This document shows, one piece after another, positions 3,085 through 49,457 of a stretch of 64,000 nt of DNA (positions are counted from its first letter, which is position 1; each line of letters begins with the position of its first letter). A model generated the notes under the pieces. The model was not told the DNA's origin and made no database searches. It saw only the letters and a list, made by a program, of their open reading frames with translations. The position numbers and the translations under genes were made by a program. The stretch covers positions 2,927,501 through 2,991,500 of the forward strand of contig NZ_CP125380.1 of the NCBI RefSeq assembly GCF_034009455.1, read 5' to 3'. Origin of the DNA: Pseudomonas sp. P5_109 (lineage in GTDB: Bacteria > Pseudomonadota > Gammaproteobacteria > Pseudomonadales > Pseudomonadaceae).

Positions 3085-3903
3085 ATGGCAAAGAAGAAGG
3101 CTGCATCGAAAAACAAACCGGCTGAAGGCGACAAGCTCAAGAACAAGGTGTATCTCGAGGAACTGGCGCGCTTGCATGTCGAAATGGTCAAGTTGCAGGA
3201 GTGGGTGCAGCACTCGGGCGCCAAGGTTTGCATCATCTTCGAGGGCCGTGATGGCGCCGGCAAGGGCGGAACCATCAAGGCGCTGACCGAACGGGTCAGT
3301 CCACGGGTGTTCCGGGTGGTGGCGTTGCCGGCACCGACCGATCGGGAAAAAAGCCAGATGTATGTGCAACGTTATCTGCCGCACCTGCCGGCGGCCGGTG
3401 AAGTGGTGATCTTCGATCGCAGCTGGTACAACCGCGCCGGTGTAGAGCGGGTCATGGGATTCTGCAGCGAAGAGCAGGTGCGCAATTTTCTCACCTCGGT
3501 GCCGCGCGTCGAGCAGGCACTGGTCGAATCAGGAATCATCCTGATCAAGTACTGGCTTGAGGTGAGCCAGGAAGAGCAGACCCGGCGTCTCAAGGAGCGT
3601 ATCACCGACGGACGCAAGATCTGGAAGCTGTCGCCCATGGACCTCAAGTCCTATAACCGCTGGTACGACTACTCTCGTGCCCGGGACGACATGTTCGAGG
3701 CCACCGACACCGATTTCGCCCCGTGGCGGGTCGCCAACTCCAATGACAAGCGCCGGGCGCGACTGAACATCATCAGTGATGTGCTGGGGAGCATTCCCTA
3801 CGAAGAAATACCGCGGGCAAAAGTGAAGTTGCCCAAACGGCAGGCGCCGGGTGATTACCGGGAGCCGGATTATCCGTATCGGCGGATTGCGGAGAGGTTC
3901 TAG
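3085..3903 (+). CDS. ppk2: Polyphosphate kinase 2 (PPK2)
   Basis: 272 aa. The start is the ATG at 3085, preceded by AAGGAGGT at ideal spacing; an in-frame TTG at 3067 would put that ribosome-binding site inside the gene. PPK2 enzymes transfer phosphate between polyphosphate and nucleoside di- or monophosphates in the cytoplasm. Walker A is GRDGAGKGG (about residues 54-62), Walker B is VIFDRSWYNRAGVE, and the lid region contains EEQTRRLKERITDGRKIWKLS, all typical of PPK2. One-domain length suggests the class that phosphorylates nucleoside diphosphates (inference). It has a lysine-rich N-terminus (MAKKKAASKNK). A weak hairpin follows at 3925. Confidence 0.93.
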   Translation: MAKKKAASKNKPAEGDKLKNKVYLEELARLHVEMVKLQEWVQHSGAKVCIIFEGRDGAGKGGTIKALTERVSPRVFRVVALPAPTDREKSQMYVQRYLPHLPAAGEVVIFDRSWYNRAGVERVMGFCSEEQVRNFLTSVPRVEQALVESGIILIKYWLEVSQEEQTRRLKERITDGRKIWKLSPMDLKSYNRWYDYSRARDDMFEATDTDFAPWRVANSNDKRRARLNIISDVLGSIPYEEIPRAKVKLPKRQAPGDYREPDYPYRRIAERF

Positions 3904-3924
3904 AGGCACACTGTGCGATGAGGC

Positions 3925-3954
3925 CTGTGCCCGGTCTTGAGGAGTCGGGCACAG
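3925..3954 (+). terminator. Possible terminator after ppk2
   Basis: Perfect 9-bp inverted repeat CTGTGCCCG / CGGGCACAG with a 12-base loop, 22 bases after the ppk2 stop. The T-rich tail is weak (ttactgccatttt), so efficiency is uncertain. It lies between convergent genes. Confidence 0.45.
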
Positions 3955-4039
3955 TTACTGCCATTTTAATTAATGCCCGATCAACCGTTGCCGCAATGGC
4001 TATGCTGCGGGTTGTGGGCATGCGAAGCACATTCCGGAG

Positions 4040-5197
4040 TCATTTACGCGAGCGCGCGGGCTTGCGTTTAGGATCAACCGCAGCATTATTTTCGCCCCGA
4101 TAAACCTCGGCAAAAATGTCGGTGATCGCGCGCAGCGGTCTGCGTTGCTTGAGGGCTTTGACCTGTTTACCCAGGCGAATCAACTCGTCGCTTGGCTTGG
4201 CCCACTGATCCTCAGGGATCGACTCCGACCACGCCTGCATGGCCTCAGGCAGTTTTTTGCGGCCGACCCTGGCGATGCGCTTCACTTCCCATTCGACGAG
4301 GCGATTGGGCAGCGTCCAGAACGTCATGACGTGGTAGAGGTACCAGAAAAAGGCGTGAATCCAGCCGACTTCCTTTTCACGCACCCTGCGGTGCAGGCGG
4401 GCGCGGGCATTGCGGAAGGTGTGCAGGCCTTCATGAGGCGGATCGTCGGGGCCTTACAGGTCCATGGGGTCCTGGATGCTTTTGAGGTCGTGGACTTCGT
4501 ATTCCATGTAGGCGCGGACAGCTTCCCAATGGGCAATCGCCAGTTGCATGCCACCACACATGAACTCAACGCTGACCAGTTCGCCTTGATGGTGAAAGCC
4601 CATGCCCATGCCGTACTGGCGAGTCACTCCATACTGTGTGGTGCCTTGGGCCTGGACGACCCAGGCGGAGAGGGATTCCCAAGGTACGAAAAGTGGCGCC
4701 TCCGCTCCCGTGGGCATAAAGCAGACTTCGCGGCGTTGGCGGTTGAAGCGGGTGGGGATGACCTCCGTGTATTTATTGTGGACGTAGAGCCAGACGGCGA
4801 GACCGATGCTCAGTACGCACAAATACATCCAAATGGTTGGTTCCAAACCAGCTAGAAAGATACCTTGCATCGCATCCCAAATATCATCCCGACCGTAGCC
4901 GAGGCTTAGCCCAAAAAGAGCGCCGACAATCGGAGCACCGACGAGCATCAAGAACGCAGCGGTAAAAGGAATACCTAATGTTACCTGCCACGGAAACACT
5001 TGGGGCTTGCCGCCGCCAAAGTCCAGGTAGGTGTCGTTGAGATCGTTCACATAAGGGCTGTAGGGCGATGCGTCGGTAGGCAGCGGTAATGGTGCCATGT
5101 ACGTCGTGTAGCCAGAGGGAAACTGTTCGACGTCTCCAGCGCGGTGCAGTTTCATTGCCGGCGGATCAATTGGGTGGCTATCAAGGGTTTTAGACAT
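4040..5197 (-). pseudogene. Interrupted second copy of the putative membrane immunity protein
   Basis: Same 385-codon length and frame as the intact copy at 5654-6811, but codon 248 is TAA (4456-4454) where the intact copy has CAA; a single C-to-T change accounts for it. Upstream it reads MSKTLDSHPIDPP to PMDL, and downstream the frame stays open to the natural end, so there is no frameshift. The truncated product would keep both membrane segments (about residues 75-98 and 113-140) and lose the last 138 residues. Compared with the intact copy, differences cluster in the two membrane segments and the loop between them, while the rest is nearly identical. It overlaps the upstream toxin-tail fragment by 8 bases. 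It could still yield a short product or be read through; I call it a pseudogene on the intact paralogue's evidence. Confidence 0.82.
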
Positions 5198-5657
5198 GCG
5201 CAGCCAACTCCAGCATCAGAGGCTCTACTCGCAGCAGAGGGGCGTGAGGGGCGGGTGGGACTTGAGCAACCGAAGGGAAGGCACCACTTTCCCTTGGATC
5301 TAGACGAATGTAGTGCGTGCTCTGTTGTGGCAGCCCACTCGCATGGGTGCTTCGAATGGCCACGACCAGCATCAATTCCTCGCCCGTTTTACCGATAATG
5401 CGCTCACGGGCTTGCGGGTAGCTGACACAGAGAATGATCTGATTGTCGTCCACGCGGCGTAGTCCGGCGTCGACAGGTTCGCTAAGCATTTCCCAGCGTT
5501 CGCTGGTCTGCGCTCTATCGACGCGAATCTTGTTGATGCGGTAGGCGCCGATCCACAATTGATGGCTGGGCTTGCCGCCCAGCGGCGCCAGGAAGGCTGC
5601 AGTATCCAGCCCGGGTAACAGCAAGTGGATGTCGCCGACTTTAGCGCTCTGCGTCAT
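5190..5657 (-). CDS. Orphan C-terminal fragment of the VasX-like effector
   Basis: 155 aa. From residue 5 on it matches the last 151 residues of the large effector (6804-10484), with 13 differences by my count, nearly all in the second half. The first four residues (MTQS) are new sequence from the duplication junction. The ATG at 5657 overlaps the stop of the upstream immunity gene (ATGA) and has no Shine-Dalgarno sequence, so any translation would be by coupling. It lacks the delivery and membrane-inserting parts of the effector, so it is not expected to be toxic as a pore. It resembles the displaced toxin tips seen in Rhs/CDI loci, but here it seems a by-product of tandem duplication. It could be a donor for gene conversion or could act as decoy (inference). 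Confidence 0.75.
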   Translation of the reverse strand: MTQSAKVGDIHLLLPGLDTAAFLAPLGGKPSHQLWIGAYRINKIRVDRAQTSERWEMLSEPVDAGLRRVDDNQIILCVSYPQARERIIGKTGEELMLVVAIRSTHASGLPQQSTHYIRLDPRESGAFPSVAQVPPAPHAPLLRVEPLMLELAAHV

Positions 5658-6811
5658 TTTCGCGAGCGCGCGGGCTTGCGTTTCGGATCACCCGCAGCAT
5701 TATTTTCGCCCCGATAAACCTCGGCAAAAATGTCGGTGATCGCGCGCAGCGGTCTGCGTTGCTTGAGCGCTTTGACCTGTTTACCCAGGCGAATCAACTC
5801 GTCGCTTGGCTTCGCCCACTGATCCGCAGGGATCGACTCCGACCATACCTGCATGGCCTCAGGCAGTTTTTTGCGGCCGACCCTGGCGATGCGCTTCACT
5901 TCCCATTCGACGAGGCGGTTGGGCAGCGTCCAAAAAGTCATGACGTGGTAGAGGTACCAGAAAAAAGCGTAAACCCAACCGACTTCCTTTTCACGCACCC
6001 TGCGGTGCAGGCGGGCGCGGGCATTACGGAAGGTGTGCAGGCCCTCATGGGGGGGATCGTCGGGGCCTTGCAGGTCCATGGGGTCCTGGATGCTTTTGAG
6101 GTCGTGGACTTCGTATTCCATATAGGCGCGAACGGCTTCCCAATGGGCAATCGCCAGCTGCATGCCACCGCACATGAATTCAACGCTGACCAGTTCACCT
6201 TGATAGTGAAAGCCCATACCCATGCCGTACTGGCGAGTCACACCATACTGTGTGGCGCCTTGGGCCTGGACGACCCAGGCGGAGAGGGATTCCCAGGGTA
6301 CAAAAATCGGAGCGTGCGCGCCCGTGGGCATGAAGCAGACCTCGCGGCGTTGGCGGTTGAAGCGTGTGGGGATTACTTCGGTGTATTGGTTGTGAATATA
6401 GATACATACGCCGAGACCGACGCCCAAGCAGAGCAAAGACATCCAGATTACAAGTTCCAAACCAGCTAAAAAGACGCCTTGCATCGCATCCCACATATCA
6501 TCCCGACCGTAGCCGAGGCCTGCCGCCATAAGAGCGCTGATAACCGGAGCACCGACGAGCATCAAGAACGCAGCGGTAAAAGGACCACCCAATGTCACCT
6601 GCCATGTCAATACTTGGGGCTTGCCGCCGCCAAAGTCTAGGTACGCGTCGTTGAGATCGCTCACGTAGGGGCTGTATGGTGATGCCTCTGTAGGTAGTGG
6701 TAGCGGTGCCAAATACGTCGTGTAGCCAGAGGGAAACGGTTCGACGTCTCCTGCGCGATGTAATTTCATTACCGGCGGATCAATCGGGTGGCGATCAAGG
6801 GATTTAGACAT
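5654..6811 (-). CDS. Two-span membrane protein, probable immunity protein for the VasX-like effector
   Basis: 385 aa, starting MSKSLDRHPIDPP, with a proline-rich N-terminus. Two hydrophobic spans (about residues 75-98 and 113-140) are separated by a short GYGRDDMWD loop, followed by a large soluble C-terminal part rich in Trp and basic residues (WESLSAWVVQAQG, REKEVGWVYAFFWYLYH). The start overlaps the effector's last codons by 8 bases, so it is translationally coupled. Position directly downstream of a membrane-active T6SS effector, the membrane location and the duplication with the toxin tail all point to immunity. I believe such proteins carry a domain of unknown function (possibly DUF6708) but could not check. 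It ends with a basic tail (GDPKRKPARSRK). Function is inference from context. Confidence 0.7.
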   Translation of the reverse strand: MSKSLDRHPIDPPVMKLHRAGDVEPFPSGYTTYLAPLPLPTEASPYSPYVSDLNDAYLDFGGGKPQVLTWQVTLGGPFTAAFLMLVGAPVISALMAAGLGYGRDDMWDAMQGVFLAGLELVIWMSLLCLGVGLGVCIYIHNQYTEVIPTRFNRQRREVCFMPTGAHAPIFVPWESLSAWVVQAQGATQYGVTRQYGMGMGFHYQGELVSVEFMCGGMQLAIAHWEAVRAYMEYEVHDLKSIQDPMDLQGPDDPPHEGLHTFRNARARLHRRVREKEVGWVYAFFWYLYHVMTFWTLPNRLVEWEVKRIARVGRKKLPEAMQVWSESIPADQWAKPSDELIRLGKQVKALKQRRPLRAITDIFAEVYRGENNAAGDPKRKPARSRK

Positions 6812-9800
6812 GCGCAGCCAACTCCAGCATCAGGGGCTCTACTTGCAGCAGAGGGGCGTGAGGCGAGGGAGGGACTCGATCAATCGATGGGAAGGCGCCG
6901 TCTCCCCTTGGGTCAAGACGAATGTAGTGCGTTCTCTGTTGCGGCAGCCCGCTGGAATGGATGCTTTGAATGGCCACAACCAGCATCAGTTCCTCGCCCG
7001 TTTTACCGACAATCCGCTCACGGGCTTCCGGGTAGCTGACACAGAGAATGATCTGATTGTCGTCCACGCGGCGTAGTCCGGCGTCGACAGGTTCGCTAAG
7101 CATTTCCCAGCGTTCGCTGGTCTGCGCTCTATCCACGCGAATTTTGTTGATGCGGTACGCTCCGATCCACAATTGATGGCTGGGCTTGCCGCCCAGCGGC
7201 GCCAGGAAGGCTGCAGTATCTAGCCCGGGTAACAACAAGTGGATATCGCCGACTTTGGCTCGCAGAAGCAGGTTTTTCCACCAGGAGTCATGTTCAACAC
7301 GACCGACCTGCACAGAAGGTGCCTGTACGATCGCGATCAAGGCGTTTTGGTATTCAGTGAGACTCAACGCTTTGCGTTTACTCGCGTCCTGTCCCCACGG
7401 TGTATTTTGTAGCCATTGGTCATGAGCACTGGTGTTGTAGTAGTTGTAAACATAGTTTCCACCCAACTCCAACGCCGTAAACAGAACGCCGGCCAGGTTC
7501 GCGCGGAAAAAAACGCTTGATAGCCGGACACCGGAGGCGGCCCATGCCGCGGTCCTGGCAGCCCCCTGCTTGGCCGCAATTACCGTAGCCGTCGCGTAGA
7601 CCGTATTGCCCAGGCCATACATATTGCTTGCCAGCAAACCGCCTGAACCCACCATCGACATGACCGCGCCGGCCTGAGCCCCATCGTTGCCGCTGCGGAC
7701 GGCTTGCTCCCAGCTACCTTGATAACTGTTGAGGCTGGAACCGGCAGCGAACAGCCCGAATACATAAGTCATCACTCCTAGACCAATGTGCAACTTTCCC
7801 ATCTGCACCTGTACATGGGCGACTGCGTGATTCTGTAGCCCTTTGGCCAACACTAAGCTACGCGCGCTCAGCGCTGTATCGAATACACCTTGAGCTGCAG
7901 CAAAGCCTGCTGCGCCCGTAGCCGCGAAAGAATTCAGAGCAGGTCGCCAAGTTCGTTGGTTTTTACTTGTAGCCAAAGTCTCAGCGAACACTTGCCGCAG
8001 ATTCAAAGCCTGCACCACAAACAACAACAACGCCGCCCCATCCCCCATCAGATTCAATTTCGGCGCAGCCTTCACACCGCTCCGATAGTTCTTCATCAAC
8101 CCTGCTATTTCCTGCTGGCTCGCCGGAGGAAATACCACCGTGATGCCCGCCCTTACGGGCGTTGCCCCATACAACCGCACGCTGTTGCCAGGCAAGTCGC
8201 CAATAGGACTCAGTGCCCCCGCCAGCCGCGCTTCGGTGCCTGTCAGCTGCTGGCGGGCGATGGCTATTTCAACCTGGAGCTGTTGCGCTTGGGGTGACTT
8301 GTGCCCCCTCGTTTGCTTTACCTTGTTGCGCTCGCGATTAAGCGTTTGCAGATAGGCTTTTTCTTCGAACAAATCCTTGAGGGTGCGTCCAAGCGCAGCC
8401 TTCTCGGCCTCCGATGCGACGGTAAAGGTCACGCCCTCGCGCCTTGCCGCATCGAGAATTCGCGTCGGCAACGCCTTGGGTAAACGACGAAAGAGCTGAT
8501 CAAGATCAGGCATCGGCTGCCCCTTGAGCACCTGATCAAAGTCGGCCAGCACTTTTTCAATGCCGCGATTGAGCGCCGGGGTCATGGTCTGCTGCGCGGC
8601 GTCGGCCACCGCACGGGTGTCGTCCGGGAGCCTGTCGAGGGCCGGCAAACGGTTTTTCTCGATATCCTGGAGGCTTTTCAGATACTCGGACAGGTTGTTG
8701 AACAACGTCATGCCCGCCGCCGGCGCGAACGCATACTGCACCCACAAGGCCGTCTGTTGACTGTAGGGCAGCGTATAAAACATGGGGCGGCTGAATTGCG
8801 GTTCTTTCTCCAGGTACTGGAGAATCACCTCGCAGGCTTCATCGCTTCGACAAATATCCTTCAGGCAGGCGTATTCGGTCGCAAAACATTGGCCAATCTG
8901 TTCGGCATTCTGGGGGTCGTAGTACCAGGCACTTTTATGAAAACGCCCGGCGCACAGCAGGGCTGTTCGATCCGCGGTAATGTTGTCGAGTAGCGTGTTC
9001 CAACGCTTGAGTGATTGGCGGTGCTGGAACAGCGCACTGTCCATCGCGTCACGGTCGATCAGATCGTTGATACCGCGTTGGCCCATCTTGGCGCCATCAA
9101 GAACGTCCTTGATTCGGCGGTCTTGCTCTTTACCGAGCTTGAGCAGGGCCTCGAAATGTGTCTCGACGAAGTCTTGTGGCGCCTCCTTGAAGTGTTCACG
9201 GGTGTAATAGCGACGATCCGTGTCTTCGATGTTTCGACCCGATGCCGTGTAGTCGGGTGCGGACCCTTGGTAGCGGGCCATGTGCATGGCGTCGTCCAGC
9301 GCCTCCTTTTGCAACCTGGCCAGTTCTGGCGGTACCGGACTGCCTTTCGGTGGGGTGGGCAAGCCGCCTTTGTTGAGGTATTCGACAATGGTTTGGCGTG
9401 TTGTACCTTGCTCCGGCTCCTGCATGTTATCCAGGTCGCCGAGCATGCGTTTGATGGCAGGGTCGTCACTGGCGTCGGCCAGCCCGTCGATCTCCTCCCG
9501 GGTCAATTGAGTCAGCGACTCGATATAGCAGGCCAGCAGATAATCACGCTCGTTGGCACGTTCTTGCGATCCACCCTTGGCCCATGTATCGATCCAGTCG
9601 GCCACCTGATCCTGGTAGTTGGCAAGGTCGCGAAGGACGCCAATGGAATCCTCCACCACCAAATACAAGACGTCATGCCGGTACTCTTCCTCGATGCAAC
9701 CGCTCAGGGGGCTCATCGATGATTCACGAAAGCGTTCAGGCATTTCCCACAAATAGGGGATGCGTTCATTTTCGGGGGTGCCATAGACATTGACGGTGGG

Positions 9801-10484
9801 AATGAGCGTCGCTTTTTCTTCCGGCTCGCCGCGTTTGCGGCGTTCAGCATTATCAGCCTCTTGAAGTGCTTTTGCCGCCGCCTCATCCCGGGCAGTTTGC
9901 TCGCTGCGGACCCGAGCGGTGGCGACCTCGGCCAGCCAGCGTTCGGCCTGGGCCGGCGTCAATAAACCGGGGCCTCCCGTTTCACAATTGGCCTGCCCCA
10001 GATCGACCGCCTGCATGAAGAACTTGCGTTCGGATTGGCTCTTGAGTACCTGGTGGCACTTTTTTGCGGTCCACTGTATTTCGGAATAGCTGATATGCAG
10101 TTCACTGCGTTTGGAAAATATCAAAACAGGTTCGCTGATGGGCTGTTCCCGAACATCAGTGTGGACTTCCTTCCCTTGCCAGAGCATCGCGCTGACCAGT
10201 CCATCGGTGAGCCGATACTCCGACAGTTCTCCCTTTTGACCGTCGATCACATAGAGCCAGCCATCGCGCAGCAGGCGAATGCCCAGGGGGCGAGTACCGA
10301 GTGTGTACGGGACAGGGATCTCGTTCGAGGGGTCCAACGCCGTGCCATCGACCAATCCATAGCGTAACGGCACCAATTGAACCTGGCTCTTCATCAGCGG
10401 GCAGGTACCCATGGAGTTCTTTGCATCGTCGCGGCTTGCATTGACGTGGTTAGGGTTTTTTCCTGCGGGTGTCGAGGTGCTCAT
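6804..10484 (-). CDS. VasX-like T6SS effector (predicted membrane-disrupting toxin)
   Basis: 1226 aa. The N-terminus (about residues 1-200) contains CPLMKSQVQLVPLRYGLV and RPLGIRLLRDGWLYV, matching the conserved start of VasX / BTH_I2691-type T6SS effectors. A long helical, charged middle follows, with coiled-coil-like segments (about 700-770). Hydrophobic segments lie at about 815-830, 895-920, 935-970 and 990-1017, as expected for a colicin-like pore former acting on the target inner membrane. The last ~150 residues (from about 1073) form a separate soluble tip that is also found as the duplicated orphan fragment. The start overlaps the DUF4123 adaptor stop by 4 bases (ATGA), giving the order hcp-vgrG-adaptor-effector-immunity. 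No enzyme motif seen. Secretion through VgrG-1 with the adaptor is inferred from order. Confidence 0.82.
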   Translation of the reverse strand: MSTSTPAGKNPNHVNASRDDAKNSMGTCPLMKSQVQLVPLRYGLVDGTALDPSNEIPVPYTLGTRPLGIRLLRDGWLYVIDGQKGELSEYRLTDGLVSAMLWQGKEVHTDVREQPISEPVLIFSKRSELHISYSEIQWTAKKCHQVLKSQSERKFFMQAVDLGQANCETGGPGLLTPAQAERWLAEVATARVRSEQTARDEAAAKALQEADNAERRKRGEPEEKATLIPTVNVYGTPENERIPYLWEMPERFRESSMSPLSGCIEEEYRHDVLYLVVEDSIGVLRDLANYQDQVADWIDTWAKGGSQERANERDYLLACYIESLTQLTREEIDGLADASDDPAIKRMLGDLDNMQEPEQGTTRQTIVEYLNKGGLPTPPKGSPVPPELARLQKEALDDAMHMARYQGSAPDYTASGRNIEDTDRRYYTREHFKEAPQDFVETHFEALLKLGKEQDRRIKDVLDGAKMGQRGINDLIDRDAMDSALFQHRQSLKRWNTLLDNITADRTALLCAGRFHKSAWYYDPQNAEQIGQCFATEYACLKDICRSDEACEVILQYLEKEPQFSRPMFYTLPYSQQTALWVQYAFAPAAGMTLFNNLSEYLKSLQDIEKNRLPALDRLPDDTRAVADAAQQTMTPALNRGIEKVLADFDQVLKGQPMPDLDQLFRRLPKALPTRILDAARREGVTFTVASEAEKAALGRTLKDLFEEKAYLQTLNRERNKVKQTRGHKSPQAQQLQVEIAIARQQLTGTEARLAGALSPIGDLPGNSVRLYGATPVRAGITVVFPPASQQEIAGLMKNYRSGVKAAPKLNLMGDGAALLLFVVQALNLRQVFAETLATSKNQRTWRPALNSFAATGAAGFAAAQGVFDTALSARSLVLAKGLQNHAVAHVQVQMGKLHIGLGVMTYVFGLFAAGSSLNSYQGSWEQAVRSGNDGAQAGAVMSMVGSGGLLASNMYGLGNTVYATATVIAAKQGAARTAAWAASGVRLSSVFFRANLAGVLFTALELGGNYVYNYYNTSAHDQWLQNTPWGQDASKRKALSLTEYQNALIAIVQAPSVQVGRVEHDSWWKNLLLRAKVGDIHLLLPGLDTAAFLAPLGGKPSHQLWIGAYRINKIRVDRAQTSERWEMLSEPVDAGLRRVDDNQIILCVSYPEARERIVGKTGEELMLVVAIQSIHSSGLPQQRTHYIRLDPRGDGAFPSIDRVPPSPHAPLLQVEPLMLELAAHV

Positions 10485-11380
10485 ACAGGGTTCCTTTGCA
10501 GAAGTTCAGCCCTTTCCTTGGCGACACTGGCGAGGTGTTCGATGCGTTGGATCGACGTGCGATGTGAGGGGGTTGCAAGCAGTGCATCGAGATCGGGATG
10601 CTCGACCAGTGCTTGCACGCCGAGGAAGCCGTGAATATTGGCGTAGAGGGTTACATCGAGTTCGGTGTTGAACCCGCGATCGTAGGCGGCCGATGCGAGC
10701 GCATGCAGATGTTCCCGGCGCTGCTGCGGGGTCGCATGAGCCTGATAGTTAGGGAAGTGTTCATGCATGTGTTGGTCGAGGCGCATGACTACATTGCGAA
10801 AATTCACCTCATCCAAAAGACTGAGCTGTATTTCGGTCAGTCGATAGCGTTGGTTATGATCGGTCTTTGGTGCATCGCCCGGGCGCAGATTCATGTGCCA
10901 GAATCCCAGTGCAGCATCAGCGGTGACGAGTTGCTTGCAAGGGCCGAACAAGGTGGTTTCCTTGAGGCTTTGCCCATGCGCGAGCAGGGCCTGGGTGACG
11001 GCGGGGTCGGCGATGCGTAACAACACTTCTTCGCCTTGCGGGTGCAATACGCTGGTGAGCCAACGGAAGTGCGCGACCATGTGTTCCCATGAGTGGTCGC
11101 TGAATGCCAGATAACCCCACTCCTGGCGGGAGGCACTCAGGAACTGTGTCAGGACTGGATCGTCTTGGGTTTTTATCTGCACCAGGCACGGAGAAATATC
11201 GAGGAGTTCGGCCCAGGGAGTGCCAAGGTACAGCGGTTCGAATACAGGACTTTGCGCCCACTGGTACAGGTGCTGCGCAAGCTTTTCGACGCTCACGCCA
11301 TCCAGTAGCAGACCCACCGTGCCATTCCACGGAAGGCCTTGAGGCAATCCATTTTTCAGCGGCCATTGTGTGTCAGGCAT
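10481..11380 (-). CDS. DUF4123 T6SS effector adaptor (Tap/TEC type)
   Basis: 299 aa. Its layout fits the DUF4123 family: an N-terminal alpha/beta domain with YLGTPWAELLDISPCLV, followed by WGYLAFSDHSWEHMVAHFRWLTSV and LLRIADPAVTQALL, features I associate with DUF4123. Such adaptors bind an effector and load it on the cognate VgrG in the cytoplasm and are not part of the final spike. It lies between vgrG (8-base overlap at its start) and the VasX-like effector (4-base overlap at its end), so the three are translationally coupled. The C-terminal third is all helical and may hold the effector-specific part. No membrane segment or signal peptide. Recognition is from memory of the family, not an alignment. 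Confidence 0.85.
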   Translation of the reverse strand: MPDTQWPLKNGLPQGLPWNGTVGLLLDGVSVEKLAQHLYQWAQSPVFEPLYLGTPWAELLDISPCLVQIKTQDDPVLTQFLSASRQEWGYLAFSDHSWEHMVAHFRWLTSVLHPQGEEVLLRIADPAVTQALLAHGQSLKETTLFGPCKQLVTADAALGFWHMNLRPGDAPKTDHNQRYRLTEIQLSLLDEVNFRNVVMRLDQHMHEHFPNYQAHATPQQRREHLHALASAAYDRGFNTELDVTLYANIHGFLGVQALVEHPDLDALLATPSHRTSIQRIEHLASVAKERAELLQRNPV

Positions 11381-13418
11381 TTTTTTGCACCTCCCGTTTG
11401 GCGGCTTCGCAAATCGCGCAAACAGGTTTCTTCTGCATCAGCGCCTGCCGCTGCGCTGGCGCCAACAATTGCCCCGCCTTATCCGCATCCGCTTGCTTGA
11501 GCGGCCCCGGCAACAACGGCGCCGCCGCCGTCCCATTGCCCGGGCTGCCTCCATCATTCACATTCACCACCGGCCCGCTTATCGCCACGCCGCTGCCATC
11601 GATCTTGATAAAGCTCCCGCCGGCCTTAAGCGTCAGTTCACTGCCGGCTTCCAGCACCACCTTCATGCCGCCGCTCAGGTGAATCTCCTGCCCGGCTTCG
11701 ATGAATTGTCCGCTGCCAATCCTGACGTGCTGGTTCGCAGCTACGGTCAGGTGGTCATCCGCCCGCGCTTGCACCTTGCGGTCGGCGTAGACGGTGTGGT
11801 GTTCCTCGGCCTTGAACTCGCTGTAGCTGTTTTGCTCGACGGTGTCGTGGCGCTCGTTGCCGACGCGGATTTTCTGGTCGTGCTCAATGTGTTCATCCCA
11901 GTCACGCTGGGCGTGCAGGAAAATCTGTTCCTGGCCCTTTTTGTCTTCGATGCGCAGCTCGTTGAAGCCACCACCACCGGGTGAGCTCATGCTTTTGAAG
12001 GTGCTGCGTGTCTTGTTGGTCGGCAACTCGTAGGGAACGGTGTTTGCCTTGTGGTACAGGCAGCCGCTGATCAGTGGCTGGTCGGGGTCGCCCTCAAGAA
12101 AAGTCACCAGTACTTCCATGCCGATTCGCGGGATGGCGATGCCGCCGTAATGTGCGCCGGCCCAGGCGGAGGACACGCGCAGCCAGCAGCTGGTTTTATC
12201 GTCGCTTTGGCCCTGGCGGTCCCAGTGGAATTGCACCTTCACCCGGCCGTATTGATCGCAGTGGATTTCTTCGCCTTCGGGGCCGGTGACCACGGCGCTC
12301 TGGCTGCCGAGGATGCGCGGTTTCGGGTGGCGCAGGGGCGGGCGGTTCGGTACGTCCCACGGCGTGGCCTGGAAGCGGTTGCGATAACCCTGGTGGAAAT
12401 CGTCTTTCAGCGAGCTGGTGTCGCTGGTCATCGACTCTTCCAGCACTTGCGGCTGTTTGCCTTCGTGGTGGACTTCGGTGAGCAGCCACAGGTCGTTCCA
12501 GCGGGTCTTGGTGTGTTGGGTCAGTGGCAGGAAGTGTCCACTGACCAACAACGGTTGGTCGCTCTCGCCTTTGGCGAGCTGATAGTCGCTGCGATGGCGC
12601 TCCAGGGCGCGTTTGGCAAGGTGCCTGCCGCGTTCGCGATGGATGAAGCGACCCGGATAGTCATAGTCTTCGAGGTCGGGGAGGGCGTCGCCGCGGTTTT
12701 CGGATTCGAGGGTGATGCGTGGTTTTTCAAAGTCGTAGTCGCGCCGGATCGTGCGGCTGGTACGGGTTTCCAGACGCAGGTCGAAGCGCTTGATGACCGG
12801 GTCGTCCGCCGCCATGCCGGAGTCTTGCTTGTAGGCTACGGGAGCGAGTTTCGGGAACACCGCCTGGTTATCACCGAACACCAGTTGGTGGGCGGTGGCG
12901 CTGTGCTGGAAGTGGTAATGAATACCTTCTTCCTCGCACAGGCGCTGGATGAACTGCAGATCCGACTCATCGTATTGAACGCAGTAAATGCGTTCGGGAT
13001 AAATCGCACCGAGGTTAAAGATGTAGGCATTGCTTTGAATGCCATGCTCTTCGAGAACCGTACCAATGATTCTTGGCACATTGAGGTTTTGGAAGATGCG
13101 CTGGTTGATGCGGTGCGCCAGGTTGGCCAGCTGCGGTTTCAGCGTCACGGCGTAGCGGGTCAGACGCTTGCCGGAGTCACCCTGGGTGGCACGATGGATT
13201 TGGCCGTGAATGCCGTTGCCATCAGGTGACAGCTGCAAAAAAGCGGGCTTGTGCATCAAGGTTTCGAGGTCGAGGGACGGTTGCTCGCTGACTAAATCAA
13301 TGTCGAACGAGAACGGCTGGTTGATGGCTTCGCGACCCGTCAGAGAGAAGACTTGAAGGTCGTTTGCCAGCCCCTCGATGGACAGGTTGAAGTGGGTCTG
13401 ATTGGCTGGTGCGAACAT
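11373..13418 (-). CDS. vgrG: T6SS spike protein VgrG (TssI), effector-linked copy 1
   Basis: 681 aa. The gp27-like region (about residues 1-370) begins FAPANQTHFNLSIEGL and contains YCVQYDESDLQFIQRLCEEEGIHYHFQH. The OB/gp5 region includes GSQSAVVTGPEGEEIHCDQYGRVKVQFHWDR and GGIAIPRIGMEVLVTFLEGDPDQP. A beta-helix needle with charged repeats (about 480-620) follows, then a short tail ending in CAICEAAKREV. It has no enzymatic extension, so its cargo is probably the downstream effector. It lies 81 bases after hcp in the same orientation and should share its sigma-54 promoter. AAGG precedes the ATG. It differs from the second VgrG (37054) mainly in lacking that copy's transthyretin-like tail. Confidence 0.96.
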   Translation of the reverse strand: MFAPANQTHFNLSIEGLANDLQVFSLTGREAINQPFSFDIDLVSEQPSLDLETLMHKPAFLQLSPDGNGIHGQIHRATQGDSGKRLTRYAVTLKPQLANLAHRINQRIFQNLNVPRIIGTVLEEHGIQSNAYIFNLGAIYPERIYCVQYDESDLQFIQRLCEEEGIHYHFQHSATAHQLVFGDNQAVFPKLAPVAYKQDSGMAADDPVIKRFDLRLETRTSRTIRRDYDFEKPRITLESENRGDALPDLEDYDYPGRFIHRERGRHLAKRALERHRSDYQLAKGESDQPLLVSGHFLPLTQHTKTRWNDLWLLTEVHHEGKQPQVLEESMTSDTSSLKDDFHQGYRNRFQATPWDVPNRPPLRHPKPRILGSQSAVVTGPEGEEIHCDQYGRVKVQFHWDRQGQSDDKTSCWLRVSSAWAGAHYGGIAIPRIGMEVLVTFLEGDPDQPLISGCLYHKANTVPYELPTNKTRSTFKSMSSPGGGGFNELRIEDKKGQEQIFLHAQRDWDEHIEHDQKIRVGNERHDTVEQNSYSEFKAEEHHTVYADRKVQARADDHLTVAANQHVRIGSGQFIEAGQEIHLSGGMKVVLEAGSELTLKAGGSFIKIDGSGVAISGPVVNVNDGGSPGNGTAAAPLLPGPLKQADADKAGQLLAPAQRQALMQKKPVCAICEAAKREVQKNA

Positions 13419-13499: not shown

Positions 13500-14018
13500 T
13501 TAGCCAGCAACAGGCGAACGCCAGTCATCGGAACCCGAAGTACCGCAAACTTCGTGGGTCCAGGTGATTTTGCGGTAGGTGAATTCGACGTCTTCCAGGT
13601 GAGTGAAGTGCGAGTTCGACGGGTCCTGGCAGTTGTGCATGTAGTCTTTGATGTCGACGATGATTGCGTCTTCAAGCTTGGTGGTGAAGTAGTGTTCCTG
13701 GGTGCCGGCAGCCGAGGTGCGGTACCACTGGATGGTGATTTCGTTCAGGCGCTCGCCGGAAGTCAGGGCCGACAGCAGCAGGGGCGAGGACTTGTCGAAC
13801 ACCTTGGTGATTTTCACTGGCTTGTGAACGCGCTGGCCGGTCGGTTGGCCGGACTGTGGGTCACGTGGAATGATCACTTCGTGACTGAACCCCTGAACCA
13901 TCACCTGGTCTTCGTGACCTTCCTGGTAGGTGTTGCCCACCGAGTCAGCGGTGAAGGCATCTTTCGTTATCAGGCCTTGTTTGGTGCCGATGATGGACAT
14001 GTACGCTGGTGTAGCCAT
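13500..14018 (-). CDS. hcp: T6SS inner tube protein Hcp (TssD)
   Basis: 172 aa, the normal Hcp size. The sequence ATPAYMSIIGTKQGLI, HEVIIPRDPQSGQPTGQRVHKPVKITKVFDKSSPLL and the end region FTYRKITWTHEVCGTSGSDDW are typical Hcp features. It forms stacked hexameric rings inside the TssBC sheath and can carry small effectors. AAGGAG lies at good distance from the ATG. A strong sigma-54-like promoter lies 70 bases upstream (14102-14088) and paired dyads about 100 bases further. It is the first gene of the minus-strand hcp-vgrG-adaptor-effector-immunity operon, divergent from tssA. Confidence 0.97.
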   Translation of the reverse strand: MATPAYMSIIGTKQGLITKDAFTADSVGNTYQEGHEDQVMVQGFSHEVIIPRDPQSGQPTGQRVHKPVKITKVFDKSSPLLLSALTSGERLNEITIQWYRTSAAGTQEHYFTTKLEDAIIVDIKDYMHNCQDPSNSHFTHLEDVEFTYRKITWTHEVCGTSGSDDWRSPVAG

Positions 14019-44275: not shown

Positions 44276-46459
44276 TCAAGCCTTGATCACATACCCATAC
44301 GCCCGGGTACGACCGCCTTCCTGCTGCAAATACACGCCCTGCAACTCCGGCGTGAAACCCGGCAAGCGGTTGATGCCTTCCTCCAGCGCCAGGAAGTATT
44401 TCAGCACCGCGCCACCCCAGACTTCGCCCGGGATGATGCAGAGCACGCCCGGCGGATAAGGCAACGCACCTTCAGCCGCGATCCGCCCATCCGCATCCGC
44501 CAACGCCACCAGTTCGACGTTGCCGCGGATGTACTCGATTTGCGCCTGCTGCGGGTTCATGGCCTTTTTCGGGAAGTGTTCCTTGCGGAACATGTCCTTT
44601 TGCAGTTGCTGCACGTTGTGATGGCGGTAGAGGTCGTGCATTTCCTGGCAGAGCTGACGGATGGTGTAGTTGCGGTAGCGTTCCTGATGCTGCGCGTAGA
44701 TCGCCGGCAGTACCCGGCTCATCGGCGCGTCATCGCTGATGAAGCGTTCGAAACGGGCGATCTGTGCGGCCAGGTGGGTCATCTTCGCCCAGTCTTCGGC
44801 CGGGGTGAGCAGGAACAGGATCGAGTTGAGGTCGCATTTTTCCGGAACGATGCCGTTCTCGCGCAGGAAGTTGGCGAGGATGCCGGCGTGAATGCCGAAG
44901 CCGGTGTAGCTGCCGTCGACCGGGTCGATCCCCGGGGTGGTGAACAGCAGCTTGCACGGGTCGATGAAGTACTGCTTCTCGGCATAACCGGCAAAGGCGT
45001 GCCAGCGATCCTTGGGATGGAACTCGAAGAAGCGGATGTCATTGGCGATTTCTTCGGTGGGATAGTCTTCCCAGGCGCGCCCTTCGATGGTGTACGGCAC
45101 GAACGGGCGGACCATGGTGCAGGCTTCGAGGATCAACTTGCGCGCCTCGATGCCGAACTTCACGCAGTCTTCCCACAGGCGCAGGCCGCTGCGGCCCGAG
45201 TGGATGCGCGCATTCACATCCAGCGAGGCGAACAGCGGGTAGAACGGGCTGGTGGACGCCTGGGCCATGAACGCGTTGTTCAGCCGGTGATGGTTGCAAT
45301 AACGGGCCTGGCCTTTGATGTGGCGGTCTTTCTTGTGCACCTGGGAGGCCTGGGAAAAACCGGCCTGCTGCTTGTGCACCGACTGGGTGACGAAGATACC
45401 GGGGTCGTTTTCGTCGAGGTCGAGCAGCAGCGGCGAGCAGTCCTTCATCATCGGGATGAACTGTTCGTAACCGACCCACGCCGAGTCGAACAGGATGTAG
45501 TCACACAGCTTGCCGATGCGGTCGACCACTTGCCGGGCGTTGTACACGGTGCCGTCGTAGGTGCCCAGTTGAATGATCGCCAGGCGGAACGGCCGCGGCA
45601 GTTGCGCCTTGTCCGGGGCGACTTCGGCAATCAGTTCGCGCAGGTAGTCTTCTTCGAAACAGTGGGCGTCGATGCCGCCGATGAAGCCGTAAGGGTTGCG
45701 CGCGGTTTCCAGATACACCGGCGTCGCGCCGGCCTGCAGCAGCGCACCCTGGTGGTTGGATTTATGGTTGTTGCGGTCGAACAGCACCAGGTCGCCGGGG
45801 GTCAACAGGGCGTTGGTCACCACCTTGTTGGACGCCGAGGTGCCGTTGAGCACGAAGTAGGTCTTGTCCGCATTGAACACCTGCGCCGCGTGTTTCTGCG
45901 CCAGCAGCGCCGGGCCTTCGTGGATCAGCAGGTCGCCGAGCTTGACGTCGGCGTTGCACATGTCGGCGCGAAACAGCGTCTCGCCGAAAAAGTCGAAAAA
46001 CTGCCGACCGGCCGGGTGCTTGCGAAAGAACTGGCCGCCCTGGTGACCGGGGCAGGCGAAGGTCGCATTGGCTGCTTCGGTGTAGTGCTTGAGGGCGTCG
46101 AAGAACGGCGGCAGCAGGCTTTCTTCGTAGGCCTTGGCGGCGGTTTCCAGTTGGTTGCCATGGTATTCGACGTTGCTCGGTGACAGGTCGAAGATGCCAT
46201 TGACCTGCAGCAGCACGTCATTCAGGTGTTTGTAGACTTCTCGCGGGTGGGTGCTGGTGCCGGGGGACGCCACCAGGAAAATCGGCACATCAAAACCGGT
46301 GCGCTGGATGGCGTCGAGGGCTCCGGCCAACACATCATTGACCGACACCACGGCCACGGCCACGTCGGTGAAGTCGGTGTGACCGAGCGGAACCACCTCC
46401 CGGGCGTTCAGGAAACATTCGGATGCGCCTTCACTGGCAGCGATTTTCAGGGCTTTCAT
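44276..46459 (-). CDS. Ornithine decarboxylase, SpeC/SpeF type (PLP enzyme)
   Basis: 727 aa. The start MKALKIAASEG at 46459 has AGGAGA upstream; the frame extends to a GTG at 46483 without one. The receiver-like N-domain (about 1-110) and the PLP fold match E. coli SpeC/SpeF closely by memory, including LFDRNNHKSNHQGALLQAGATPVYLE and TQSVHKQQAGFSQ, where the HK lysine binds PLP. It converts ornithine to putrescine and CO2 in the cytoplasm. Lysine and arginine decarboxylases share the fold, but the NGTSASNKV and IQLGTYDGTVYNARQV segments favour ornithine. A PauB/PuuB-like oxidase nearby would use a putrescine derivative. Convergent with the vgrG remnant. Confidence 0.88.
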   Translation of the reverse strand: MKALKIAASEGASECFLNAREVVPLGHTDFTDVAVAVVSVNDVLAGALDAIQRTGFDVPIFLVASPGTSTHPREVYKHLNDVLLQVNGIFDLSPSNVEYHGNQLETAAKAYEESLLPPFFDALKHYTEAANATFACPGHQGGQFFRKHPAGRQFFDFFGETLFRADMCNADVKLGDLLIHEGPALLAQKHAAQVFNADKTYFVLNGTSASNKVVTNALLTPGDLVLFDRNNHKSNHQGALLQAGATPVYLETARNPYGFIGGIDAHCFEEDYLRELIAEVAPDKAQLPRPFRLAIIQLGTYDGTVYNARQVVDRIGKLCDYILFDSAWVGYEQFIPMMKDCSPLLLDLDENDPGIFVTQSVHKQQAGFSQASQVHKKDRHIKGQARYCNHHRLNNAFMAQASTSPFYPLFASLDVNARIHSGRSGLRLWEDCVKFGIEARKLILEACTMVRPFVPYTIEGRAWEDYPTEEIANDIRFFEFHPKDRWHAFAGYAEKQYFIDPCKLLFTTPGIDPVDGSYTGFGIHAGILANFLRENGIVPEKCDLNSILFLLTPAEDWAKMTHLAAQIARFERFISDDAPMSRVLPAIYAQHQERYRNYTIRQLCQEMHDLYRHHNVQQLQKDMFRKEHFPKKAMNPQQAQIEYIRGNVELVALADADGRIAAEGALPYPPGVLCIIPGEVWGGAVLKYFLALEEGINRLPGFTPELQGVYLQQEGGRTRAYGYVIKA

Positions 46460-47669: not shown

Positions 47670-47708
47670 GCGATTTTGGCTGGCGGGTGTATTGAATGTT
47701 CCGGCCCC

Positions 47709-47800
47709 TTCGCGAGCAAGCCCGCTCCCACATTTTGATTTTCAGTGACCGCAAAAATGTGGTCACCCAAGATCCCTGTAGGAGCGGGCTTGCCCGCGAT
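47709..47800. repeat. Inverted REP pair
   Basis: Left element cgcgagcaagcccgctccca (47711-47730) and right element aggagcgggcttgcccgcga (47780-47799) form an inverted pair of the Pseudomonas REP type. It lies between convergent genes and may act as a bidirectional terminator. Confidence 0.85.
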
Positions 47801-47845
47801 GAGGCCGGCACAAACAACATCAATGCCGGATGTGCAGCGAATGGA

Positions 47846-49186: not shown

Positions 49187-49274
49187 GTGGGAGCGGGCTT
49201 GCTCGCGAAAGCGTACTTTCAGCCGACATCACTGCTGAATGACACACCGCTTTCGCGAGCAAGCCCGCTCCCAC
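49187..49274. repeat. Perfect 27-bp inverted REP pair
   Basis: GTGGGAGCGGGCTTGCTCGC.. at 49187-49213 and its exact reverse complement at 49248-49274 around a 34-base loop. It lies just upstream of the FAD oxidase gene, in the gap 49130-49502. No other gene is supported in that gap apart from a doubtful 29-codon frame. Confidence 0.92.
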
Positions 49275-49457
49275 AGGTTCTGTGTGTGGCTGAGCAGGGT
49301 TCACGCGGACCGGGATAGCGAAAGGAGGGGGCTCACCAATCAGGCGAGCAGGGCGCTATCCGGCGGACGTGCGGAATGACGCAGTTTCGAGCGGCGCAGG
49401 GCCATGGGCAGGTTGACGATACGCTTCATGCGCGTGTTTCCGGCTGCGGAAATCGTT

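What the first reader, a model, noticed from the sequence alone, without database searches (positions are those of the whole stretch)
4040..7267. Tandem duplication of a pore-forming effector's tail and its immunity gene, with one copy interrupted
A 1614-bp unit is repeated. It leaves a headless toxin tail and a second immunity gene whose codon 248 is TAA (CAA in the intact copy). The first ~75 residues of the two toxin tails are identical, while the differences lie in the second half. In the immunity pair the differences concentrate in the two membrane spans. This looks like ongoing toxin-tip and immunity diversification.
Basis: partly seen in the sequence, partly recalled or inferred. Interest (0 to 1): 0.75.

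Follow-up and report, generated by a model that had tools for sequence, protein, structure and literature searches.

The report
Toxin stump and spare immunity gene
Behind an intact toxin-and-antidote gene pair of a bacterial injection weapon lies a partial second copy: the probably harmless end of a toxin and a second antidote gene that is cut short, an arrangement also seen in related bacteria, where leftover toxin ends may be kept because they help the next antidote gene to be read.

Summary
Confirmed: two 1.6-kb copies, 1614 bp apart and without indels, hold the toxin's last ~151 codons plus the immunity gene. The distal immunity copy is cut at codon 248. Amino-acid differences cluster in the tail's second half and in the immunity protein's membrane-span region.

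The toxin is a Ptx2 homologue (PDB 9qpv). In the related toxin Tke5 the C-terminal beta-domain is non-toxic and immunity acts on the helical part. So the headless tail is probably not a spare warhead, and "ongoing toxin-tip diversification" is only partly right.

In 17 of 67 annotated Pseudomonas loci a toxin stump lies between two immunity genes, resembling displaced effector–immunity arrays of Vibrio. Synonymous divergence of the copies (0.23–0.30) is like that of flanking genes from the nearest sister species sampled, so the pair is not recent. Duplication and allele insertion are not separated: these copies are each other's closest relatives, unlike most arrays.

The lead I find newest: stumps are usually in-frame bridges, starting at an ATG that overlaps the upstream immunity stop and ending at the next immunity start (16 of 22 gaps of at least 100 nt). 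Retention for expression of the orphan immunity gene is inferred, not shown.

The parts
6804..10484 (-). full-length effector, 1226 aa: VasX_N domain (aa 28-164), long body, pore-region segment (about aa 801-1073, window 7266-8084; limits set by me), C-terminal tail (aa 1074-1226)
   Evidence: VasX_N E=3.7e-25; Ptx2 homologue, PDB 9qpv
6804..7267 (-). tail of the full-length effector, second copy of the repeat (homology to about 7259)
5654..6811 (-). intact immunity gene, 385 aa, presumed cognate of the full-length effector
   Evidence: named immunity by its position next to the effector; no Pfam or NCBIfam family at E<=0.01
5190..5657 (-). headless toxin tail, 155-aa ORF with its own ATG
   Evidence: matches Ptx2 residues 1037-1183
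4454..5197 (-). second immunity gene up to its premature stop, 247 aa
4454..4456 (-). TAA at codon 248 of the second immunity gene
4040..4453 (-). rest of the second immunity gene after the stop, frame otherwise open, 137 codons
5654..5657 (-). ATGA: stop of the intact immunity gene overlaps the start of the headless tail
5190..5197 (-). 8-nt overlap of the tail's stop with the start of the second immunity gene; a GGAG motif lies at 5208-5211 inside the tail's last codons
6804..6811 (-). same 8-nt overlap between the full-length effector and the intact immunity gene
10481..11380 (-). DUF4123 adaptor
   Evidence: E=1.4e-22
11373..13418 (-). VgrG spike protein
   Evidence: TIGR03361 E=2.3e-203
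13500..14018 (-). Hcp tube protein
   Evidence: E=1.8e-37

Best explanation
This is the end of a type VI secretion operon (hcp, vgrG, DUF4123 adaptor, effector, immunity) that carries a second cassette behind the live effector-immunity pair: the 3' stump of an effector gene plus a diverged immunity gene. The live pair is intact. The distal immunity gene is an orphan whose effector is gone except for its C-terminal domain, and it has been cut at codon 248, probably lately. The stump itself is most likely not a weapon. I think it was retained because it carries what the orphan immunity gene needs for expression: the ribosome-binding site in the effector's last codons, and an in-frame path that takes ribosomes from the upstream immunity stop (ATGA) to the orphan start. 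A promoter inside the stump is a possible further or alternative reason. The cassette arose by recombination that stacks [toxin 3' end + immunity] units, either duplication of an ancestral unit or insertion of a related allele; the two are not separated here. Shown: anatomy, divergence, family-wide layout, frame statistics. Inferred: protein functions, expression, age order, the reason for retention.
For: Anatomy. Ptx2 homology of the effector and of the tail alone (E=1.9e-12). In Tke5 the beta-rich region alone is non-toxic and binds model membranes, and immunity acts on the helical region. Census: 106 immunity copies (at least 60% covered) in 67 loci, one locus being a duplicate record: 48 behind a toxin with N-terminal part, 20 (in 17 loci) behind a headless stump downstream of another immunity gene, 25 behind another immunity gene with no detected toxin part. 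Those 20 stumps start at many points and reach the toxin's last residues. Frame: for gaps of 100-3500 nt, the ORF starting at the overlap with the upstream immunity stop ends within -15 to +30 nt of the next immunity start in 16 of 22, other two frames 4 of 44; by my hand count 9 of 12 distinct junctions are bridged, p=0.004 against 1/3. Later immunity genes are kept: 41 intact, 3 broken. Divergence calibration. In V. cholerae the 3'-terminal 253 bp of vasX suffice to drive a lacZ reporter, and vasX is reported to hold a promoter for tsiV2 (passages).
Against: In this genome the orphan immunity gene is broken, one of only 3 broken among 44, so here the stump now serves a truncated product. The stump's branch shows 9 nonsynonymous to 6 synonymous changes against 2 to 6 on the live tail, 9 more being ambiguous: few counts, but they hint at relaxed constraint. 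Six of 22 gaps are not bridged in the tested frame, and 11 of 46 junctions between immunity genes have no start codon overlapping the upstream stop. Junctions shared by descent are not independent. Three loci (L114, L115, L121) carry toxin fragments behind the last immunity gene found there, with no immunity gene after them in the fetched DNA, so fragments can persist without serving one. Some adjacent immunity genes have no detected toxin part. No expression data.
Confidence: 0.67

Rival explanations
1. In-place tandem duplication: unequal exchange duplicated the toxin tail and immunity gene within this lineage; the copies then diverged, with amino-acid change favoured in the membrane spans, and one is dying.
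For: The two copies are sisters in the whole-gene tree (SH-aLRT 94; monophyletic) and in the C-domain tree (96). Their best membrane-span match is each other (72% against 63-66%), and they are each other's nearest by path even in the span-only tree. No indels in 1.6 kb. Four-fold sites do not reject even divergence along the unit (scan p=0.058).
Against: Synonymous divergence is species-scale. The island is missing or replaced at this site in the sister genomes that could be read, so the divergence probably predates its arrival. In the span-only tree the pair is not monophyletic, though resolution is poor. 55 of 66 array copies in the family have their closest span in another species. Only five other genomes hold this subfamily (12-row clade).
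Confidence: 0.4
2. Displacement: an incoming related effector-immunity allele was inserted upstream and pushed the resident toxin's 3' end and immunity gene to the back, as proposed for Vibrio cholerae arrays.
For: Layout and order as in that model, including a partial effector gene (PMC5361080, sections 10 and 13 read). Family pattern: 22 of 29 arrays not monophyletic; some junctions shared between species. The tail half that differs here is also the half that differs between two full-length toxins of G139 (a and c: dN 0 in the first half, 0.071 in the second).
Against: That paper's own criterion against duplication (array mates not closest kin) is not met by this pair.
Confidence: 0.5
3. Reservoir of spare toxin tips, as in CDI and Rhs orphan modules: the tail can be swapped onto the full toxin to change specificity.
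For: Tail copies differ in their second half, and the shared first half offers homology for exchange. Over all toxin-immunity pairs every toxin segment, tail halves included, keeps a positive partial correlation with the immunity spans (0.23-0.38).
Against: The tail lacks the helical region that kills and is neutralised in Tke5. In close pairs the immunity spans do not track the tail's second half (rho -0.06, p=0.82). [quoted passage not shown]
Confidence: 0.1
4. Sequencing error at the stop codon, the repeat itself being real.
For: Single-base nonsense; the 137 codons after it are still open, with 5 amino-acid differences between the copies; later immunity copies in relatives are nearly all intact.
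Against: The genome is one contig; substitution errors are thought rarer than indels in such assemblies (general knowledge, not tested). No reads available.
Confidence: 0.1

Closest known systems
Ptx2 of Pseudomonas aeruginosa (PDB 9qpv)
   Same: Homologous over nearly the whole effector (aa 15-387 and 424-1220), tail included
   Different: The window's module has a second partial copy; no meaningful relative of the immunity protein among solved structures
Tke5-Tki5 of Pseudomonas putida (called BTH_I2691 family in its paper)
   Same: vgrG, DUF4123 adaptor, effector, immunity order; helical body and C-terminal beta-rich domain in Tke5 (PMC12909789: outline with abstract, section 10 and passages seen)
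   Different: Only 9qpv matched at E<=0.01; whether Tke5 is in that copy of the PDB was not checked. The NCBIfam BTH_I2691 model scores 110, below its cut-off of 150
Orphan immunity arrays by sequential displacement in Vibrio cholerae T6SS clusters (PMC5361080)
   Same: Live effector-immunity pair followed by further immunity genes and a partial effector
   Different: The two copies here are each other's closest kin; the stump is an ORF that overlaps both neighbours
Orphan cdiA-CT/cdiI and Rhs modules (PMC3150448)
   Same: Headless toxin end plus immunity gene behind the main locus
   Different: There the orphan end is the toxic domain and in most cases lacks translation start signals; here it is probably non-toxic and has a start

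Membership tests
VasX_N effectors (Pfam PF20249) | VasX N-terminal region above the curated cut-off | tested here: met
   89.2 bits against 27
BTH_I2691 family (NCBIfam NF041559) | score above the curated cut-off of 150 | tested here: not met
   110.3 bits; related, not filed as a member
Ptx2-like effectors | homology over body and C-terminus to Ptx2 | tested here: met
   two stretches, 325 and 748 bits
Ptx2-like effectors | pore formation and neutralisation by the adjacent gene | not testable with these tools
   no experiment
Displacement-type T6SS immunity arrays | extra immunity genes behind the effector-immunity pair | tested here: met
Displacement-type T6SS immunity arrays | 3' remnant of another effector copy between immunity genes | tested here: met
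Displacement-type T6SS immunity arrays | array members not each other's closest relatives | tested here: not met
   window copies are sisters overall; family-wide 22 of 29 arrays do meet it
CDI/Rhs orphan toxin modules | orphan piece carries the toxic domain | not testable with these tools
   expected not, by resemblance to Tke5's non-toxic beta-region
CDI/Rhs orphan toxin modules | orphan toxin piece lacks translation initiation signals (reported for the majority) | tested here: not met
   ATG overlapping the upstream stop; not shown to be used

The most novel reading that the evidence does not exclude
In this Pseudomonas effector family, headless toxin stumps are selected as in-frame translational bridges: each begins at an ATG overlapping the upstream immunity stop and ends at the next immunity start, so that a chain of orphan immunity genes stays translated from one operon. 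Meanwhile recombination keeps the immunity C-domain uniform within an array and shuffles the membrane-span module between species (closest span in another species for 55 of 66 array copies; closest C-domain in the same array for 52 of 66).
Probability: 0.37. Interest if true: 0.6.

Novelty: new member of a known kind. Interest (0 to 1): 0.45.

Why it matters
It turns a remark about one broken repeat into two testable rules. First, why toxin ends persist in immunity arrays: expression of the next immunity gene rather than spare weaponry. Second, where immunity specificity sits in this pore-forming toxin family: membrane spans matched to the toxin's pore region, on a uniform C-domain. Both bear on how bacteria keep old immunities while changing weapons.

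Tried and rejected
Recombination mosaic inside the pair: segment dS by NG86 looked uneven (0.11 to 0.72), but four-fold sites do not reject evenness (scan p=0.058), so I dropped the claim.

Purifying selection on stump proteins: dN/dS of 0.08-0.25 between stumps with shared junctions in five comparisons looked like constraint; other comparisons there gave 0.17-1.84. The stump-specific leaders are nearly identical while the rest differs by dS 0.14-0.62, so the tail parts have probably been exchanged with live toxins and the ratios say little about the stump protein.

Promoter in the tail: 3 promoter-like matches on both strands of 3900-7400 against 1.5 expected; not evidence.

Pfam and NCBIfam searches of the immunity protein gave nothing at E<=0.01. 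Solved structures for it: only matches at E 0.53 or worse. Six requests for structure prediction met a full queue, so no fold was obtained.

Specificity test: one search used 41 pairs, among them a duplicate record (L163) and a headless toxin (L005_5); I reran it without both (39 pairs, 20 close ones) and report that. The result held for two pore segments (0.54 and 0.50 became 0.47 and 0.61).

Literature: 'orphan immunity' with 'translational coupling' gave 0 papers; 'type VI secretion', 'immunity gene', 'translationally coupled' gave 1, seen only as a listing; five terms on tandem duplication gave 0; gene-conversion terms gave 3 listings on other subjects. These are my grounds for saying I found no print of the bridge pattern. 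That arrays of this toxin family were not found described rests on listings and on passages of one P. aeruginosa survey whose main text names neither Ptx2 nor VasX (PMC12594252).

Limits of the census: 67 loci were annotated, chosen from the closer matches; distant matches (below about 45% identity) and some further places were not fetched, so shares are of chosen loci, not of the genus. L163 repeats L070 and was counted, but left out (intact/broken count); it has a single immunity gene, so array and junction counts are not touched. L071_i2 was dropped as a very long branch, but is one of the 41 'later, intact' genes although it lies 5 kb away. The count of 9 of 12 junctions was made by hand: L113 with L114, L116 i2 and i3 with L161, the two of L133, L137 with L155, L142 with L143 and L147, L118 with L156, and the two of L160 were each taken as one, and L116 i1 was left out as a repeat of the L005 junction with a later stop.
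Full report
Observation. The window holds two ungapped copies at offset 1614 (4040 to about 5645 and 5654 to about 7259). Read on the minus strand, the order is hcp, vgrG, DUF4123 adaptor, effector (6804-10484), immunity gene (5654-6811), headless effector tail (5190-5657), second immunity gene (4040-5197), which is cut by TAA at 4454-4456. The four genes from the effector on overlap end to start: effector/immunity by 8 nt, immunity/tail by the 4 nt of ATGA, tail/second immunity by 8 nt.

What the parts are. The effector has a VasX_N domain and is a homologue of Ptx2, for which a structure exists (9qpv). The headless tail by itself matches residues 1037-1183 of the 1192-residue Ptx2 chain. In the Tke5 paper (PMC12909789; [quoted passage not shown] That Tke5's region corresponds to the tail here rests on family resemblance, not on a direct match. 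The immunity protein has no Pfam or NCBIfam match at E<=0.01 and no meaningful PDB match; it has two strong hydrophobic segments and a large conserved C-terminal part.

The same genome and its relatives. The genome (one contig, 6.96 Mb) holds a second, related array at C1:397116-405681: a full toxin, an immunity gene, a 902-aa headless toxin and a second immunity gene. The genus is Pseudomonas, judged from named relatives. Immunity homologues at E<=1e-10 occur in 72 of 298 sampled genomes of the genus, tail homologues at E<=1e-4 in 30 of 298, the window's own genome included in both. I annotated 67 loci chosen from the closer matches, one of them a duplicate record. Of 106 immunity copies, 48 follow a toxin with N-terminal part, 20 (in 17 loci) follow a headless stump downstream of another immunity gene, 25 follow another immunity gene with no detected toxin part, 10 follow a toxin part without N-terminus as first in the locus, and 3 stand alone. 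The 20 stumps begin in the middle of the toxin or at various points in the tail and reach the toxin's last residues; some junctions recur in different species. Three loci (L114, L115, L121) carry toxin fragments after their last immunity gene. So the window's arrangement is ordinary for this family.

Age and origin. Synonymous divergence of the two copies is 0.23-0.24 (tail) and 0.30 (immunity) by NG86. The genes next to the island diverge from the nearest sister species in the sample of 398 by 0.22-0.23 and from the next four by 0.31-0.38. In G276 and G246, and with a partial match in G021, the sequence that follows the flanking genes is the one found at window 44275 onwards (G021: a short match at 44409, then from 46620), so the island 3953-44274 is missing there. 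In G243 the site holds other genes, which I recognised by eye as T6SS genes and which match the window's T6SS part weakly at three places (66-75% identity). In G232 the 3.8 kb that could be read beyond the flank show no match to the window; G172 was not read further. The divergence of the copies is thus about as deep as the split from the nearest sister species, and probably older than the island's stay at this site. Trees of 101-102 immunity proteins put the two copies together over the whole length (SH-aLRT 94) and in the C-domain (96), not in the short span region, where resolution is poor although they remain nearest by path. Over the family 7 of 29 arrays are monophyletic over the whole length, 3 of 29 in the spans and 15 of 29 in the C-domain. 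By plain identity, 55 of 66 array copies have their closest span in another species, while 52 of 66 have their closest C-domain in an array mate. The window pair is in the minority on spans (72% to each other, 63-66% to the best other species), with five other genomes in its clade. I therefore leave duplication and displacement open for this pair and lean slightly to displacement from the family pattern.

Which toxin part the immunity matches. From 39 toxin-immunity pairs (duplicate record and headless toxin left out) I took the 20 combinations, involving 23 toxins, whose toxin bodies are nearly alike (distance below 0.12). In them the three pore-region segments differ by 0.21, 0.25 and 0.09, the body by 0.06, the tail halves by 0.12 and 0.16, the immunity spans by 0.355 and the immunity C-domain by 0.047. 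The span distance follows the first two pore segments (rho 0.47, p=0.036; 0.61, p=0.004), not the third (0.14, p=0.55), not the tail's second half (-0.06, p=0.82); the tail's first half is undecided (0.41, p=0.075). The pairs are not independent, and the p-values ignore that. Over all 41 pairs every toxin segment keeps a positive partial correlation with the spans (0.23-0.38), so the contrast rests on the close pairs. It agrees with the Tke5 result and argues against the tail's second half as the part that sets specificity.

Why keep a headless tail? Of 46 junctions between neighbouring immunity genes, 35 have a start codon overlapping the first one's stop. For gaps of 100-3500 nt among these the ORF from that start ends within -15 to +30 nt of the next immunity start in 16 of 22 cases; the other two frames do so in 4 of 44. 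The fairer null is one in three, since the stump is open in the toxin's frame anyway: 16 of 22 gives p=1.8e-4, and 9 of 12 distinct junctions (hand count) p=0.004. The six exceptions are L112, the long L116 stump, L118, L156 and two in L160; from the sequences, L118 and L156 look like a two-step chain, and in L160 an ATG lies just after the stop in the toxin's frame (my reading). A GGAG, GAGG or AGGA motif lies upstream of 62 of 98 assigned immunity starts; in the window it is inside the tail's last codons. A promoter is the other candidate: the 3'-terminal 253 bp of vasX suffice to drive a reporter in V. cholerae, where vasX is reported to hold a promoter for tsiV2 (PMC3857813, passages). Stumps of a few codons (seen by eye) fit the ribosome-binding-site and frame reading better than the promoter reading. 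Later immunity genes are mostly intact (41 intact, 3 broken), which makes the window's truncated copy unusual.

Comparison with the known. The arrangement works like the displaced arrays of V. cholerae (PMC5361080, outline with abstract and sections 10 and 13 read), and resembles orphan cdiA-CT/cdiI modules (PMC3150448, passages), from which it differs by the coupled start and the probably non-toxic content. The window pair fails the V. cholerae paper's test against duplication, so I do not file it as a proven displacement array.

Verdict. The translational-bridge pattern and the span/C-domain mosaic are the parts worth following.

Noticed in passing
L005:3117-11682 (own genome, C1:397116-405681): Second array of the same family in the same genome: full toxin, immunity, 902-aa headless toxin whose middle part looks nearly identical to the full toxin (by eye), second immunity gene. 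Its long-stump junction recurs in L116, with fragments in L114 and L121.
   Followed up: partly
window 3953-44274: The T6SS region behaves as an island: sister species G276 and G246 lack it at this site, and G243 carries other genes there, T6SS-like by eye.
   Followed up: partly
L068:8939-11137, L071:9790-11110, L110:5554-7102: Intact immunity genes behind decayed or short toxin remnants; in L068 and L110 the tail match is broken into pieces.
   Followed up: no
L117:1577-6417 (G296): The pore region of a toxin gene is split by about 4 kb of other DNA, not identified, while two immunity genes follow intact.
   Followed up: no
L138 and L139 (G034): Toxin and first immunity gene are both broken into pieces while a later immunity gene is intact.
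   Followed up: no
window 47690-47830 and 49187-49287: Short repeated elements that match several places in the sister genomes in both orientations; REP-like, a label from recall.
   Followed up: no
window 5699-5727 and 4085-4113, minus strand: Same promoter-like match in the last part of both immunity copies, the first lying just upstream of the headless tail; 3 matches in the region against 1.5 expected.
   Followed up: no
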